Source: a virus
IMG/VR virus record: IMGVR_UViG_3300010158_000154
Coordinates: 1 to 39,492 of that record
DNA length: 39,492 bases
Strand: one strand, 5' to 3'
In this document: one piece after another, positions 1 to 39,341 of the stretch
Layout of the letters: each line of letters starts with the position of its first letter
How positions within the stretch are numbered: position 1 is the first letter of the stretch
The notes under the pieces: model-generated
Told to the model about the DNA's origin: nothing
What the model saw: the letters and a program-made list of their open reading frames with translations, nothing else
Databases searched by the model: none
Translations under genes and position numbers: made by a program

Positions 1-1539
1 GCGACCGACTCGAAAGACCCCCCGGCATTGGGGGTTGGCGGGGGCGATGCTATAGATACCCACCCTATTTTAATTCACGAAGAAAAACAGGCGACCCCCA
101 CCCCCGTGCCCCCCGTGGTCAAACCTGCCCTTGATCCAAAAAATATAAAAACTATGGAAGAGGCTTATGCTTTTTTCATTGAAGCCTACCGGAATAAACC
201 CGTCGAGTTCGTCGAGAATGTTTTGAAAGCTACGCCTCTGCCTTGGCAGCGGGAGTTTTTAATTGCGCTGGCGAGGGGCGAGCGGCGCATTTCAGTCCGT
301 GCAGGTCACGGAGTCGGCAAGTCTACGGTGTGTTCTTGGGCGTTAGTTTGGTTCATGCTAACACGTTATCCACAGAAATCGGTTGTTACTGCCCCCACTG
401 CTGGTCAGCTATTCGACGCATTGTTTTCTGAAGTAAAACGGTGGGTCAACGCCCTGCCCGAATATTTGAAAGACAATCTTGATGTATTCTCCGACCGCAT
501 CGTGCACAAACACGCACCGGAATCTTCGTTCATGTCGGCGCGTACTTCATCCGCCGATAGACCGGAAGCCCTAGCCGGTATTCATTCTGAGAACGTGCTT
601 ATTATTTGCGACGAGGCTTCGGCTATCCCCGAACCCGTATTTGAATCGGCAGCGGGTTCTATGTCGGGTCACTCTGCAACGACCGTGCTTATCGGGAACC
701 CCACCCGTAATACCGGCTTATTTTTTAAGACGCATCATCAGCTTAAATCCGATTGGTTTACGATGCACGTCTCTTGCCGCGACAACCCGCTTGTCTCGGA
801 AGATTTTATCGAACAGATCAAAGCCACATACGGTGAAGTCAGCAATGCGTTCCGTGTCCGCGTGCTTGGCGAGTTCTCCCTGCGCGAAGATGATGTCCTT
901 ATCGCGGCGGAGTTGGTTGAAGGAGCGATGGAGCGAGATGTTGTGCTCGACCGGCACGAGCCGATTGTGTACGGTATCGACGTGGCGCGGTTCGGCGATG
1001 ACCGGACTTGTATCGTCAAGCGGCAAGGGCAGATTGTTACGGAAATAAAAAGTTGGACCGGTGCCGATCTTATGGAAACGGTCGGAAGGATTGTGCATGA
1101 ATCCGAGATTGATAAGCCTTCTGAAATTTGCGTTGATAGTATCGGACTGGGGTCTGGTGTTGCTGACCGTCTACGCGAGCTTGGATATAACGTGCGCGAT
1201 GTTAATGTGTCTGAATCATCGGCGATGAACCCCCAGGCTGCCCGCCTCCGTGATGAACTTTGGCTGGCAGTGCGCGATTGGCTTAATCAGCGCACCTGCA
1301 AAATACCCCGCTCGGATGAGTTGAGGCAGGAACTTTGTGCACCGACTTATGGTTTTACCTCCAACGGAAAGATTAAGGTTGAAGGTAAATCCGAGATGAA
1401 GCGGCGCGGTATGCGGTCGCCTGACATCGCGGATGCTCTCTGCCTAACTTTCGCCAGCGGAGCGGCAATGGTAGGGGGCCGAGCGAGTCGATGGGTATCC
1501 GGCAAGTCCCTAAAACGCGCCATTGCGGGCGTGGTGTAA
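1..1539 (+). CDS. terL: Terminase large subunit (3' part; gene begins at 39334 across the circular junction)
   Basis: This is the ATPase and nuclease motor that packages DNA through the portal. The frame is open from base 1 and continuous with the ATG at 39334 once the 123-bp terminal repeat is collapsed, giving about 524 aa. The Walker A motif RAGHGVGKST lies near residues 112-121 of the full protein and the Walker B CDEAS near 215-219. The C-terminal RNase H-like nuclease shows GIDVARFGDD, then a VDSIG segment, then PDIADAL, which supply the expected acidic residues. The N-terminal roughly 60 residues are Pro-rich and encoded by dense G and C tracts. The TTG at 28 is in frame but is not the natural start. 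The small subunit lies directly upstream at 38937-39341. Confidence 0.93.
   Translation, partial: ATDSKDPPALGVGGGDAIDTHPILIHEEKQATPTPVPPVVKPALDPKNIKTMEEAYAFFIEAYRNKPVEFVENVLKATPLPWQREFLIALARGERRISVRAGHGVGKSTVCSWALVWFMLTRYPQKSVVTAPTAGQLFDALFSEVKRWVNALPEYLKDNLDVFSDRIVHKHAPESSFMSARTSSADRPEALAGIHSENVLIICDEASAIPEPVFESAAGSMSGHSATTVLIGNPTRNTGLFFKTHHQLKSDWFTMHVSCRDNPLVSEDFIEQIKATYGEVSNAFRVRVLGEFSLREDDVLIAAELVEGAMERDVVLDRHEPIVYGIDVARFGDDRTCIVKRQGQIVTEIKSWTGADLMETVGRIVHESEIDKPSEICVDSIGLGSGVADRLRELGYNVRDVNVSESSAMNPQAARLRDELWLAVRDWLNQRTCKIPRSDELRQELCAPTYGFTSNGKIKVEGKSEMKRRGMRSPDIADALCLTFASGAAMVGGRASRWVSGKSLKRAIAGVV
366..374 (+). promoter_or_regulatory. Perfect DnaA-box sequence
   Basis: TTATCCACA, the consensus DnaA box, inside the terminase gene. 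It is one of five perfect copies in the window, all reading TTATCCACA on the + strand. Its position in a coding region means function is uncertain. Confidence 0.3.
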
Positions 1540-26701: not shown

Positions 26702-26909
26702 ATGCGGATAGGGTAATTTTTAGATCAAGAACTTCAGCATACTTTAACGCCGTTGAAAACAACGTTGTGCCGATGTTACGCTTCCACCACCAATAAGCGC
26801 CAGGCGATTTCATACCGGCGCGGCGCGATAGTTCCCGTTCTGAAAACCCTTTTTCTACACGGGCGGCTTCGAGGGCCGCAAGTAAGGATTCCATGTTATC
26901 AATCTGCAT
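26700..26909 (-). CDS. Small HTH transcription regulator, 69 aa
   Basis: The helix-turn-helix pattern starts near residue 20 (EKGFSERELSRRAGM, then a GAYWWWKR recognition-like helix), as in Xre/Cro-type DNA-binding proteins. The C-terminus is a short helix and strand pair (ALKYAEVLDLKITL). The start is the ATG at 26909, which overlaps the DUF5664 stop by 11 nt; a more upstream ATG (26948) would overlap by 50 nt. It is a candidate for the operators at 36310-36346 or 38800-38824. Confidence 0.65.
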   Translation of the reverse strand: MQIDNMESLLAALEAARVEKGFSERELSRRAGMKSPGAYWWWKRNIGTTLFSTALKYAEVLDLKITLSA

Positions 26910-34607: not shown

Positions 34608-34818
34608 CTTGAAGTTCCTTTCTTAAAGCTATCGTTTCAGACAGCCGTGAAGTGGCGAGCCACTGATAGAACTCTCGGTACTTCTGTTCTTTTTGCAACT
34701 CTAAGATGACATCCTTCGCCCGCAGAAGCGCGTCATGCGCCTCGCCTAACTGCGCCTCTAGTTCTTTTATCCTACGGATGTTCTCGACCGAACCGAATTG
34801 CAGGACTTTCGCGGTCAT
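34594..34818 (-). CDS. Coiled-coil protein, 74 aa
   Basis: The start is the ATG overlapping the DnaA-like gene stop (ATGA, 34815-34818). Residues about 12-50 form a charged coiled coil (IRRIKELEAQLGEAHDALL region). Because it is coupled to the DnaA-like gene, it could be its partner. Function is unknown. Confidence 0.6.
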   Translation of the reverse strand: MTAKVLQFGSVENIRRIKELEAQLGEAHDALLRAKDVILELQKEQKYREFYQWLATSRLSETIALRKELQDGRK

Positions 34819-35312
34819 TTGGGTTGCCGTGCCAAATGACGCGGAACGCCTTGCAAGACACAAGTATGGTCACGGTTGCCGATGATCTGGCTTGTCCTCG
34901 GCGCAGAAAACTTGAACTTCTTGTACAACCACCAATACGCCTCCTGCCTGGCGACCATGATTTGATTCTTACGGCTCGGACCTAAAATCTCCTGCACCGT
35001 GACCTTGTGCTTCTCGGCAATCAACCGCACCATCCGCAACGCCGTCTTCTCCGACTTTGGCACCTCGCCCGCCTCGATCCGAAGCCAGTATTCTTCCGGT
35101 GAGACAAGCACGCGTTCTGCAACCACTGGAGCAGGTGCGTCAAGCACGCCTTCCATATACTGCGGCGGGGCAACCACCGCGGGGGCTGAAGGTCGTTGGA
35201 ACCCCGTTGCAACTGGCACAACCGGATAAACGTAGCGGCGCGAGCCTATGCGATGCGCAACTGCTTGGTAATGAGCGTAAAGGTCTTCGGCGGTTTGAAA
35301 TTCGAGTGTCAT
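34815..35312 (-). CDS. DnaA domain IV-like DNA-binding protein, 165 aa
   Basis: Residues about 90-160 match DnaA domain IV: a HKVTVQEILGPSR helix, an ARQEAYWWLY helix (residues 121-130) and IGNRDHTCVLQG (residues 144-155), the counterpart of the GRDHTTV signature that contacts the DnaA box. The first 90 residues are Pro/Val-rich and carry no AAA+ motor. Phage proteins of this kind probably bind DnaA boxes or compete with host DnaA. Both ends are ATGA overlaps. Five perfect TTATCCACA boxes in this genome support a role in origin control. Confidence 0.75.
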   Translation of the reverse strand: MTLEFQTAEDLYAHYQAVAHRIGSRRYVYPVVPVATGFQRPSAPAVVAPPQYMEGVLDAPAPVVAERVLVSPEEYWLRIEAGEVPKSEKTALRMVRLIAEKHKVTVQEILGPSRKNQIMVARQEAYWWLYKKFKFSAPRTSQIIGNRDHTCVLQGVPRHLARQPK

Positions 35313-36346: not shown

Positions 36347-36391
36347 CGGTGTTTTGCGCAGGGGGTTAAAATTGAAAGGGCAACGCAAGAG

Positions 36392-36434
36392 CATGGAAGG
36401 GGGATTATATTCCTACCCTTCCATGTTTTCTTTA
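36392..36434 (+). terminator. Terminator-like hairpin on the + strand
   Basis: CATGGAAGGG (36392-36401) and CCCTTCCATG (36416-36425) form a perfect 10-bp stem with a 14-nt loop, followed by TTTTCTTTAAT. No + strand gene lies immediately upstream, so it may end a short regulatory RNA or stop antisense transcription from the early promoter region. Confidence 0.6.
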
Positions 36435-36457
36435 ATAATTTCAAAGGGTTAGATAGG

Positions 36458-36487
36458 TTGAAAGGGCTGGAAGACCTTTTATATAAA
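36458..36487 (+). promoter_or_regulatory. Candidate sigma70 promoter toward the resolvase
   Basis: TTGAAA (36458-36463), an 18-nt spacer and TATAAA (36482-36487) on the + strand, in an AT-rich stretch. It would transcribe through the GACGTR array into the RuvC-like gene. Confidence 0.45.
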
Positions 36488-36578
36488 GTTTAGTAATATT
36501 ATAGGTTTTCTGTTTTATAGGTTGTTATGACGTGGTGCTGATTATACGAGGGATTTGCGTTTTTTGCCCTTCCAGCCC

Positions 36579-36602
36579 TTCCAAACGGTTAAGTGTTTGG
36601 AA
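36579..36602 (+). other. Perfect inverted repeat in the control region
   Basis: TTCCAAAC (36579-36586) and GTTTGGAA (36595-36602) form an 8-bp inverted repeat with an 8-nt centre. It lacks a T run, so it may be an operator or an origin-associated hairpin. Confidence 0.4.
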
Positions 36603-36656
36603 TCATTGCGTAAAGTGCTGTCAGAGCAGTTGTTTTTCTGGAAGGGCGTGAAAGAG

Positions 36657-36767
36657 ATGTGTTCGGGTACACTAGACGTGGACGTAAAAGGCATAAACGC
36701 GGACGTGGACGCGCCGTTTTTGCCAGACGTGGACGTGGACGTGCGTTTAATCGACAAGTGGACGTAG
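36657..36767 (+). CDS. Possible 36-aa peptide with Asp-Val repeats
   Basis: An ATG at 36657 opens a frame through the first half of the GACGTR array, giving DVDVK, DVDAPF and DVDVDVRL segments before TAG. The ribosome site (GAAGGG) is 11 nt away. It may be only a by-product of the DNA repeats. Confidence 0.25.
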   Translation: MCSGTLDVDVKGINADVDAPFLPDVDVDVRLIDKWT

Positions 36768-36829
36768 ACGTGCTATTTGGCGCACGTGGACGTAGACGTG
36801 GTGGTTCTTTCCAAGGAGACGTAGACGTG
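36675..36829 (+). repeat. Array of GACGTR dimers (iteron-like)
   Basis: Six clusters of two or three GACGTG/GACGTA hexamers start at 36675, 36702, 36726, 36761, 36789 and 36818, with 24-35 nt between starts. The last three contain identical GACGTAGACGTG. The array crosses reading frames and ends on the GTG start of the resolvase. A seventh GACGTAGACGTG copy lies at 39303-39314 in the small terminase gene. Confidence 0.8.
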
Positions 36830-37312
36830 AGGGTAATAGGTATCGACCCAGGGTTATCGGGTGCGCTCGCCGTAGTAAGCGGGCAGCCCGGTGCGTTCAC
36901 CGTAGAGTGCGTGCACGACCTGCCGACGTATTCCGAAACGACCACGACCGGCAAAGTGCGGAGGCATGTCGATCCTGTCGCATTCGCTGCGCTGCTCGAC
37001 GAGATCGGTCCTGTGGATCGCGTGGTATGCGAAAGGATGATCGCTCCTCCTGCCATCTCTGGGATGTCTGCATTCTCGATGGGCGCGACGATGGCAACAA
37101 TTATCGCAGTGCTCCGAATGGCTGGGCTCCGTGGCTATAAGCTGGTGGTGTCGAGTGTCTGGAAACGTGCTCTCGATGTGCCAGCCGATAAGGAAGCAGC
37201 ACGAAAGCACGCGATCATGCTGTTCGCGTCAGATGACCATTGGAAACTAAAAAAGGACCACAACAGAGCAGAGGCTGCGCTGATCGCGGCCTATGCCGTG
37301 CTGTCGTCCTAA
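36827..37312 (+). CDS. RuvC-like Holliday junction resolvase, 161 aa
   Basis: This RNase H-fold endonuclease resolves branched DNA before packaging. The RuvC acidic residues are visible: D7 in GIDPG, E69 in CERM, then D144 and E149 in KKDHNRAEAALIA, the last being Glu where many have Asp. The GTG start at 36827 has a perfect AAGGAG 8 nt upstream, so the longer Arg-rich frame from 36659 is not the start. The gene is isolated on the + strand between - strand clusters, and its start lies on the GACGTR array, which could regulate it. Confidence 0.85.
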   Translation: MRVIGIDPGLSGALAVVSGQPGAFTVECVHDLPTYSETTTTGKVRRHVDPVAFAALLDEIGPVDRVVCERMIAPPAISGMSAFSMGATMATIIAVLRMAGLRGYKLVVSSVWKRALDVPADKEAARKHAIMLFASDDHWKLKKDHNRAEAALIAAYAVLSS

Positions 37313-38936: not shown

Positions 38937-39341
38937 GTGGCTTGGGTAAAGGGACAATCTGGCAATCCATCCGGACACGTTGCAAAGCGTGCCGCCATGC
39001 TTCGACGCCTGGAGGGATTAACCTTCAAAGCTGTCGACGTTCTCGAAGATATCCTGCTCGACAAGACGGCGTCACACAGTGAACGCCTGGCAGCTGCAAA
39101 GGAAGTTTTCGATCGAGCGATAGGGCGCGCCAAGCAGCAAGCCACTATCGAAGTGACGCATAACGCTTCGCCTCATCTCTCGGCACTGATAGGGCTGGCA
39201 AGCATGACGACCATCGAGGGATCGCTCGCTGATCGGGGGGATCCACCGGTTCAGTCACTAGCAGATCAGTCAGCTAACGTGCTGATAACGTTAGACAATT
39301 CGGACGTAGACGTGGACATGGGGACCGATGACAATGGCTAA
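38937..39341 (+). CDS. terS: Terminase small subunit-like protein (DUF5681 start), 134 aa
   Basis: It probably recognises the packaging site and loads the large subunit. The N-terminus (WVKGQSGNPSGH) is the DUF5681 signature, and the next 70 residues are helical and basic. The acidic C-terminus ends DVDVDMGTDDNG and is encoded by a GACGTAGACGTG copy. The start is GTG at 38937; no ATG exists in frame after the upstream stop except an internal one. It overlaps the terL start by 8 nt (ATGGCTAA). Confidence 0.75.
   Translation: MAWVKGQSGNPSGHVAKRAAMLRRLEGLTFKAVDVLEDILLDKTASHSERLAAAKEVFDRAIGRAKQQATIEVTHNASPHLSALIGLASMTTIEGSLADRGDPPVQSLADQSANVLITLDNSDVDVDMGTDDNG

What the first reader, a model, noticed from the sequence alone, without database searches (positions are those of the whole stretch)
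36675..36829. GACGTR hexamer array upstream of the RuvC-like gene
Six clusters of GACGTG/GACGTA dimers or trimers recur every 24-35 nt up to the GTG start codon, in mixed frames, so coding does not explain them. They follow an AT-rich stretch with hairpins. This looks like an iteron-type origin or an operator array. A seventh copy lies about 20-30 nt before the terL start, so a packaging role is also possible.
Basis: seen in the sequence. Interest (0 to 1): 0.7.

Follow-up and report, generated by a model that had tools for sequence, protein, structure and literature searches.

The report
Repeat array before phage ruvC gene
A phage genome carries six evenly spaced copies of a short DNA word just before its Holliday-junction resolvase gene and one more just before its DNA-packaging motor gene; relatives keep the pattern or swap in a different word at the same places, which points to a docking array for a phage DNA-binding protein that has not been described.

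Summary
The array is real: 12 GACGTR hexamers in six clusters at 36675-36829, cluster ends 27-30 nt apart (shuffles reach at most 5 in such a stretch). The window is a circularly closed phage genome related to Sinorhizobium phage phiM5. Eight other phages carry GACGTR arrays in the ruvC region: seven just upstream of ruvC, one just downstream. Several keep a 29-nt period with unrelated spacers. Stop codons break the RuvC frame in two relatives, so a coding tract is not the explanation. In the window the double hexamer occurs at only one other place, the end of terS just before terL; several relatives share that copy. A sister clade has a different motif (CCCAAAATGGGGC) upstream of ruvC and, clearly in one contig, at terS/terL too. 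The array is separable from the AT-rich region, which holds its own repeats and is the better origin candidate. Best reading: a direct-repeat operator array for a phage DNA-binding protein, possibly a 69-aa HipB-fold HTH protein, linking ruvC and terminase expression. Packaging and origin roles remain open.

The parts
36675..36686 (+). repeat unit 1 (GACGTGGACGTA)
36696..36713 (+). repeat unit 2 (AACGCGGACGTGGACGCG)
36726..36743 (+). repeat unit 3 (GACGTGGACGTGGACGTG)
36755..36772 (+). repeat unit 4 (CAAGTGGACGTAGACGTG)
36783..36800 (+). repeat unit 5 (CACGTGGACGTAGACGTG)
36818..36829 (+). repeat unit 6 (GACGTAGACGTG), overlaps the ruvC GTG start; the AAGGAG Shine-Dalgarno-like site is 36813-36818
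36827..37312 (+). RuvC-like Holliday junction resolvase (161 aa)
   Evidence: phrog_1770 E 5e-19; alignment A1
39303..39320 (+). second site: GACGTAGACGTGGACATG at the 3' end of terS, just before terL
38937..39341 (+). putative terS (KGQSGNPSG near its N terminus); called small terminase from its place before terL and its conservation; only family hits are of unknown function
1..1539 (+). terL; begins at about 39335 and runs across the contig joint (123-nt terminal overlap)
26703..26909 (-). candidate reader: 69-aa XRE-type HTH protein with a HipB-like predicted fold (role inferred)
36374..36648 (.). separate repeat region (GGAAGGG/GAAAGGGC direct and inverted copies, AT-rich, perfect 10-bp inverted repeat 36392-36425): better candidate for a replication origin

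Best explanation
The array is a cluster of direct-repeat binding sites (operator or iteron-like) for a phage-encoded, sequence-specific DNA-binding protein. The protein would bind the roughly 18-bp units RACGTRGACGTRGACGTR, which repeat about every 29 bp in the promoter/leader of ruvC, and a single unit at the terS/terL junction. In this way it would couple expression of the resolvase and of the terminase/late operon, two functions that process replicated DNA for packaging. Shown by sequence: the array, its spacing, its polarity, its recurrence, the second site in part of the family, and replacement by another motif in a sister clade.
For: GACGTR arrays lie upstream of ruvC in the window and in L008, L055, L009/L075, L010/L011, L079, L093/L061 and MW202496; in L058 they lie just downstream of ruvC. 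The 29-nt end-to-end step recurs, in L079 with spacers unrelated to the window's. L009 and L010 differ by one 29-nt unit. In each record all exact double hexamers lie on one strand, with 0 in the reversed-pattern control. Similarity between the ruvC-upstream region and the terS/terL junction stands out in the window (z 5.3), L008 (5.4), L055 (6.0) and L085 (3.6). L079, L091 and, weakly, L087 have a copy in the gap after terS. L092 of the sister clade has CCCAAAATGGGGC repeats upstream of ruvC and at the terS/terL junction, there 19 nt apart and so out of codon register (z 7.1). RNA folding gives no consistent signal, which favours DNA. HTH gene: present in the three GACGTR-array records that cover its locus (window, MW202496, G013) and in G007 of the other clade, absent from phiM5 and MW202879, only weakly matched in MW202711. 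Predicted HipB fold, TM 0.86. Residues at the start of the recognition helix differ between the clades (KSP.. against MSHGS).
Against: No binding or expression data exist. The HTH correlation rests on seven records and is confounded by kinship. The two-site pattern is not significant in MW202496, L079, L093, L086, L087, L091 or phiM5 and is weak in L089, L075 and L016. In the window clade the terS copy is always in the same codon phase (D/N-V repeats), so coding may contribute. L058 has arrays in other intergenic places. Most relatives are contig fragments. ACGT is itself palindromic, so dyad symmetry of the unit comes for free and is not independent support for an HTH dimer. No sigma-70-like promoter was found by consensus in the window region.
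Confidence: 0.5

Rival explanations
1. Packaging element: the repeats and the terS/terL copy are recognition sites for the terminase or for processing of concatemers at the terminal repeat.
For: The second site lies at the terS/terL junction, which in the related phage phiM5 lies in its 357-bp direct terminal repeat. Both sites lie between the ruvC promoter region and terL, all copies share polarity, and resolvase plus terminase form a plausible packaging set.
Against: L058 has an unrelated TerS (Terminase_2 family; no match to the window TerS) yet keeps GACGTR arrays. L086, L087 and L091 have a window-type TerS without the ruvC array. phiM5 lacks the motif. The array lies about 2.5 kb from the terS/terL junction. 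The termini of the window phage are not known.
Confidence: 0.17
2. Replication origin iterons bound by an initiator.
For: Direct repeats at a near-constant spacing lie next to an AT-rich region between a leftward replication operon and rightward genes. Cumulative GC skew is lowest near by (35160 in the window; 30313 in MW202496, array at 31.7 kb). Other tandem repeats take its place in sister phages.
Against: The array travels with ruvC, not with the AT-rich region: a gap of some 650-900 nt in L010 and L075, and a gene between in MW202496. A separate repeat family sits upstream in each phage looked at. phiM5, L091 and L087 have no array. The skew minimum also follows from gene orientation, and in phiM5 it does not lie near ruvC. 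No DnaA box with at most 1 mismatch lies near by.
Confidence: 0.15
3. RNA-level leader element of ruvC mRNA (for example CsrA-like GGA motifs or translational control).
For: In the window and L008 the last copy overlaps the start codon and abuts the ribosome-binding site; all copies are in the sense orientation; ACGUGGACGU resembles a GGA loop motif (from memory).
Against: The fold is no more stable than shuffles in four of five phages (z 0.10, 1.74, 1.17, 0.95; -2.16 in L008). Distance to the start codon varies from 0 to about 70 nt. L058 arrays lie between convergent genes and upstream of an oppositely oriented gene.
Confidence: 0.08
4. Neutral simple-sequence repeat spread by slippage and recombination, with no function.
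For: Units vary in number (14 contiguous hexamers in L093). L008 and L055 share a near-identical tract of about 210 nt across the array inside 60-75% identical flanks, a sign of recent exchange. GACGTR tracts also occur in unrelated phage contigs. L091, close to L093 upstream, lacks it.
Against: A 29-nt spacing with unrelated spacers, a matching second site in several phages, and another motif at the same two places in L092 are not expected of slippage.
Confidence: 0.1

Closest known systems
Iterons of plasmid and phage origins (general knowledge)
   Same: Short direct repeats, all in one orientation, at near-regular spacing next to an AT-rich region
   Different: Linked to ruvC rather than to the initiator gene or the AT-rich region; a matching copy at terS/terL; no initiator shown
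pSM19035 omega/ParB heptad arrays (parS; PMC9499535)
   Same: Many short repeats of one word read by a small DNA-binding protein; there at least four contiguous repeats are needed for full activity
   Different: Unspaced heptads and a ribbon-helix-helix protein; here hexamers in clusters of two or three spaced about 29 nt, and no ribbon-helix-helix domain among the window proteins scanned with Pfam
Phage P1 pac hexanucleotides (from memory, not tested)
   Same: Repeated hexamers ending in R, near a terminase gene
   Different: P1 repeats lie around a cut site in the small-terminase gene; here most repeats are about 2.5 kb away and no cut is known
HipB and its operators (fold match)
   Same: The candidate reader has the HipB fold (TM 0.86); HipB binds several operators in one promoter (entries 4yg1, 5k98)
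   Different: 23-25% identity; no HipA-like partner was looked for; binding to GACGTR is untested
Sinorhizobium phage phiM5
   Same: Same gene order (leftward replication operon, ruvC, terS, terL) and homologous TerL, portal, PolA, Prim-Pol and RuvC
   Different: No GACGTR array and no detectable homologue of the HTH protein

Membership tests
iteron-type replication origin | directly repeated sites at regular spacing | tested here: met
   27-30 nt steps, 29 nt in relatives
iteron-type replication origin | linked to an AT-rich unwinding region | tested here: not met
   adjacent in the window but separated in L010, L075 and MW202496
iteron-type replication origin | cognate initiator binds and starts replication | not testable with these tools
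   needs footprinting and origin mapping
operator array of a phage regulator | same motif at more than one promoter-proximal place in the genome | tested here: inconclusive
   ruvC and terS/terL sites share the motif clearly in W, L008, L055, L085 and L092, weakly or not in the other ten tested
operator array of a phage regulator | a regulator gene that goes with the motif | tested here: inconclusive
   HTH gene matches arrays in seven informative records; recognition helix differs by clade; few lineages
operator array of a phage regulator | specific binding and effect on transcription | not testable with these tools
   needs EMSA, footprinting and reporter assays
pac/packaging site read by TerS | motif follows the TerS type | tested here: not met
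   L058 has an unrelated TerS with the same motif; L086, L087 and L091 have window-type TerS without the ruvC array
pac/packaging site read by TerS | genome termini at or near the site | tested here: inconclusive
   in phiM5 the terminal repeat ends just before terL; termini of the window phage unknown
coding low-complexity tract | open frame kept across relatives | tested here: not met
   stops in the RuvC frame in L009 and L010; clusters in two phases

The most novel reading that the evidence does not exclude
A two-site DNA system in a phiM5-like phage lineage: a small HipB-fold protein reads a clade-specific word in an array of about 29-bp pitch at ruvC and at the terS/terL junction inside the terminal repeat, and so couples resolution of replicated DNA to terminase expression or end formation; sister phages have swapped the word at both places together.
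Probability: 0.2. Interest if true: 0.7.

Novelty: new variant of a known kind. Interest (0 to 1): 0.45.

Why it matters
If the two sites are read by one protein, they would mark an undescribed control point that ties branch resolution to packaging in a family of small phages. The change of the word between sister clades would be a natural experiment on how a DNA-binding protein and its sites change together. In practice it also suggests that a published genome (MW202496) annotates part of such an array as a gene (UOF77936.1).

Tried and rejected
Coding explanation: rejected by in-frame stops in L009/L010 and mixed phases. RNA structure: no consistent excess stability. CsrA-like GGA motif: a lead only, supported by neither structure nor position. 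TerS as reader: disfavoured by L058. DnaA-domain protein at 34815-35312 as reader: seen in only some array phages, and no DnaA box with at most 1 mismatch lies near by. blastn of the region against phage records found nothing, so relatives were found through proteins and DNA patterns. The genome-contig scan with RuvC gave only distant relatives (at most 40% identity), so no host is named. Contigs with HTH homologues showed neither motif and no match to RuvC, TerS or TerL, so they could not extend the correlation. Further TerS relatives: L140 and L141 have degenerate tail copies, L144 has none. Literature searches found no description of the array.

Full report
Observation. The array is as described. 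Twelve GACGTR hexamers on the + strand lie in 36675-36829, in six clusters ending 27, 30, 29, 28 and 29 nt apart. Shuffles of the same stretch give at most 5 members of any such hexamer family, and shuffles of the whole window at most 3 in 150 nt. The last cluster runs into the GTG start of ruvC at 36827. Exact double hexamers occur in the window only here and at 39303-39314, never on the other strand.

Setting. The window is a single virus record whose first and last 123 bases are identical, so it closes into a circle with terS (38937-39341) followed by terL across the joint. Leftward genes from 36165 down to 24210 include a DnaA-domain protein, a helicase, DUF2800, a DUF2815-like protein, PolA and a Prim-Pol/DUF5906 primase; rightward genes are ruvC, then terS, terL and structural genes (some names by similarity to annotated phiM5 and MW202496 genes). 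The closest named relatives are MW202496 (metagenomic, complete, TerL 82-86% identical), MW202711 and Sinorhizobium phage phiM5 (TerL 74%), which has 357-bp terminal repeats ending just before terL.

Relatives. RuvC relatives with the array just upstream are L008, L055, L009/L075, L010/L011 (two contigs of the same or nearly the same phage), L079, L093/L061 and MW202496. L058, a relative by TerL and portal, has two arrays downstream of its ruvC. The 29-nt step recurs in L075, L011, L079 and L058; L008 and L055 show 36, 22, 35 and 29, which differ from 29 by about one hexamer. L079 keeps exactly 29 six times with spacers unlike the window's. Autocorrelation gives 29 nt as the strongest or second period in the window, L075, L011 and L079. 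L009 and L010 differ by one unit. In L009 and L010 the RuvC frame is closed by stops just upstream. L086, L087, L091 and phiM5 have no array there.

Second site. A RACGTR repeat lies at the 3' end of terS in the window, L008, L055, L075, L085 and L058, and in weaker form in L086, L140, L141 and MW202496. It is in the same codon phase each time, so coding may contribute. In L079 and L091 a double hexamer, and in L087 a weak copy, lies in the gap after terS instead. A local-alignment test of the region before ruvC against the terS/terL junction, ranked against the rest of each record, is strong in the window, L008, L055, L085 and L092, and weak or not significant in ten others. This sharing is therefore a property of part of the family.

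Another word in a sister clade. L092 has seven 14-nt copies built on CCCAAAATGGGGC before ruvC and four copies 19 nt apart at the terS/terL junction; exact CCAAAATGGGGC occurs nowhere else in its record. L016 has one or two copies at each place. L089 has 26-nt repeats with a related core before ruvC and only weak resemblance at the junction (z 2.3). The joint change of the word at both places in L092 is the best single argument that both are read by one protein, but it rests on one clear contig.

What reads it. Among the window proteins compared, the 69-aa HTH protein at 26703-26909 is the one whose presence matches arrays in the records that cover its locus. Its predicted structure (pLDDT 92) is closest to HipB (TM 0.86; best E 0.005). 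The start of the recognition helix differs between clades. This is a lead, not proof: seven records, related by descent. TerS is disfavoured because L058 has an unrelated TerS.

Origin and packaging. The AT-rich region at 36374-36648 has its own GGAAGGG-type repeats (5 of 6 GGAAGGG copies in the window lie there) and is separated from the array in L010 and L075; in MW202496 a gene stands between comparable repeats and the array. It is the better origin candidate. The terS/terL copy lies in the region that corresponds to the terminal repeat of phiM5 (inference from gene order), so a packaging role is not excluded.

Exchange. L008 and L055 are nearly identical over about 210 nt covering the array and the first part of ruvC, while flanks are 60-75% identical. 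This looks like recent recombination, so identity of the spacers in that pair is not evidence of constraint.

Verdict. A real, conserved direct-repeat array of the operator/iteron kind; a new variant of a known kind; reader and function unproven.

Noticed in passing
L053, L054, L056, L059, L065, L067, L068, L077, L082: Contigs of another phage type, several with a Gp37/68-like gene shared with HMO-2011-like phages, carry non-coding GACGTR tracts in an intergenic region before a rightward gene; no window protein matched the seven of them that were tested.
   Followed up: partly
window 36374-36648: Separate family of GGAAGGG/GAAAGGGC direct and inverted repeats with a perfect 10-bp inverted repeat in AT-rich DNA; relatives have GTTACG-, GCTACA- or TAGACA-type repeats at a like position.
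   Followed up: partly
window 34815-35312 (-): Phage protein with a DnaA C-terminal DNA-binding domain (PF08299, E 8e-11) but no close DnaA boxes near the array.
   Followed up: no
L008:257-470 and the matching stretch of L055: Near-identical tract over the array and 5' ruvC within diverged flanks, a likely recombination tract.
   Followed up: partly
L107:5632-5805 (MW202496.1, UOF77936.1): The public record annotates a hypothetical protein across the array; probably not a gene.
   Followed up: no
L124:3473-3677: HTH homologue that leaves the frame after about 20 residues in the contig although the match is 94% identical.
   Followed up: no
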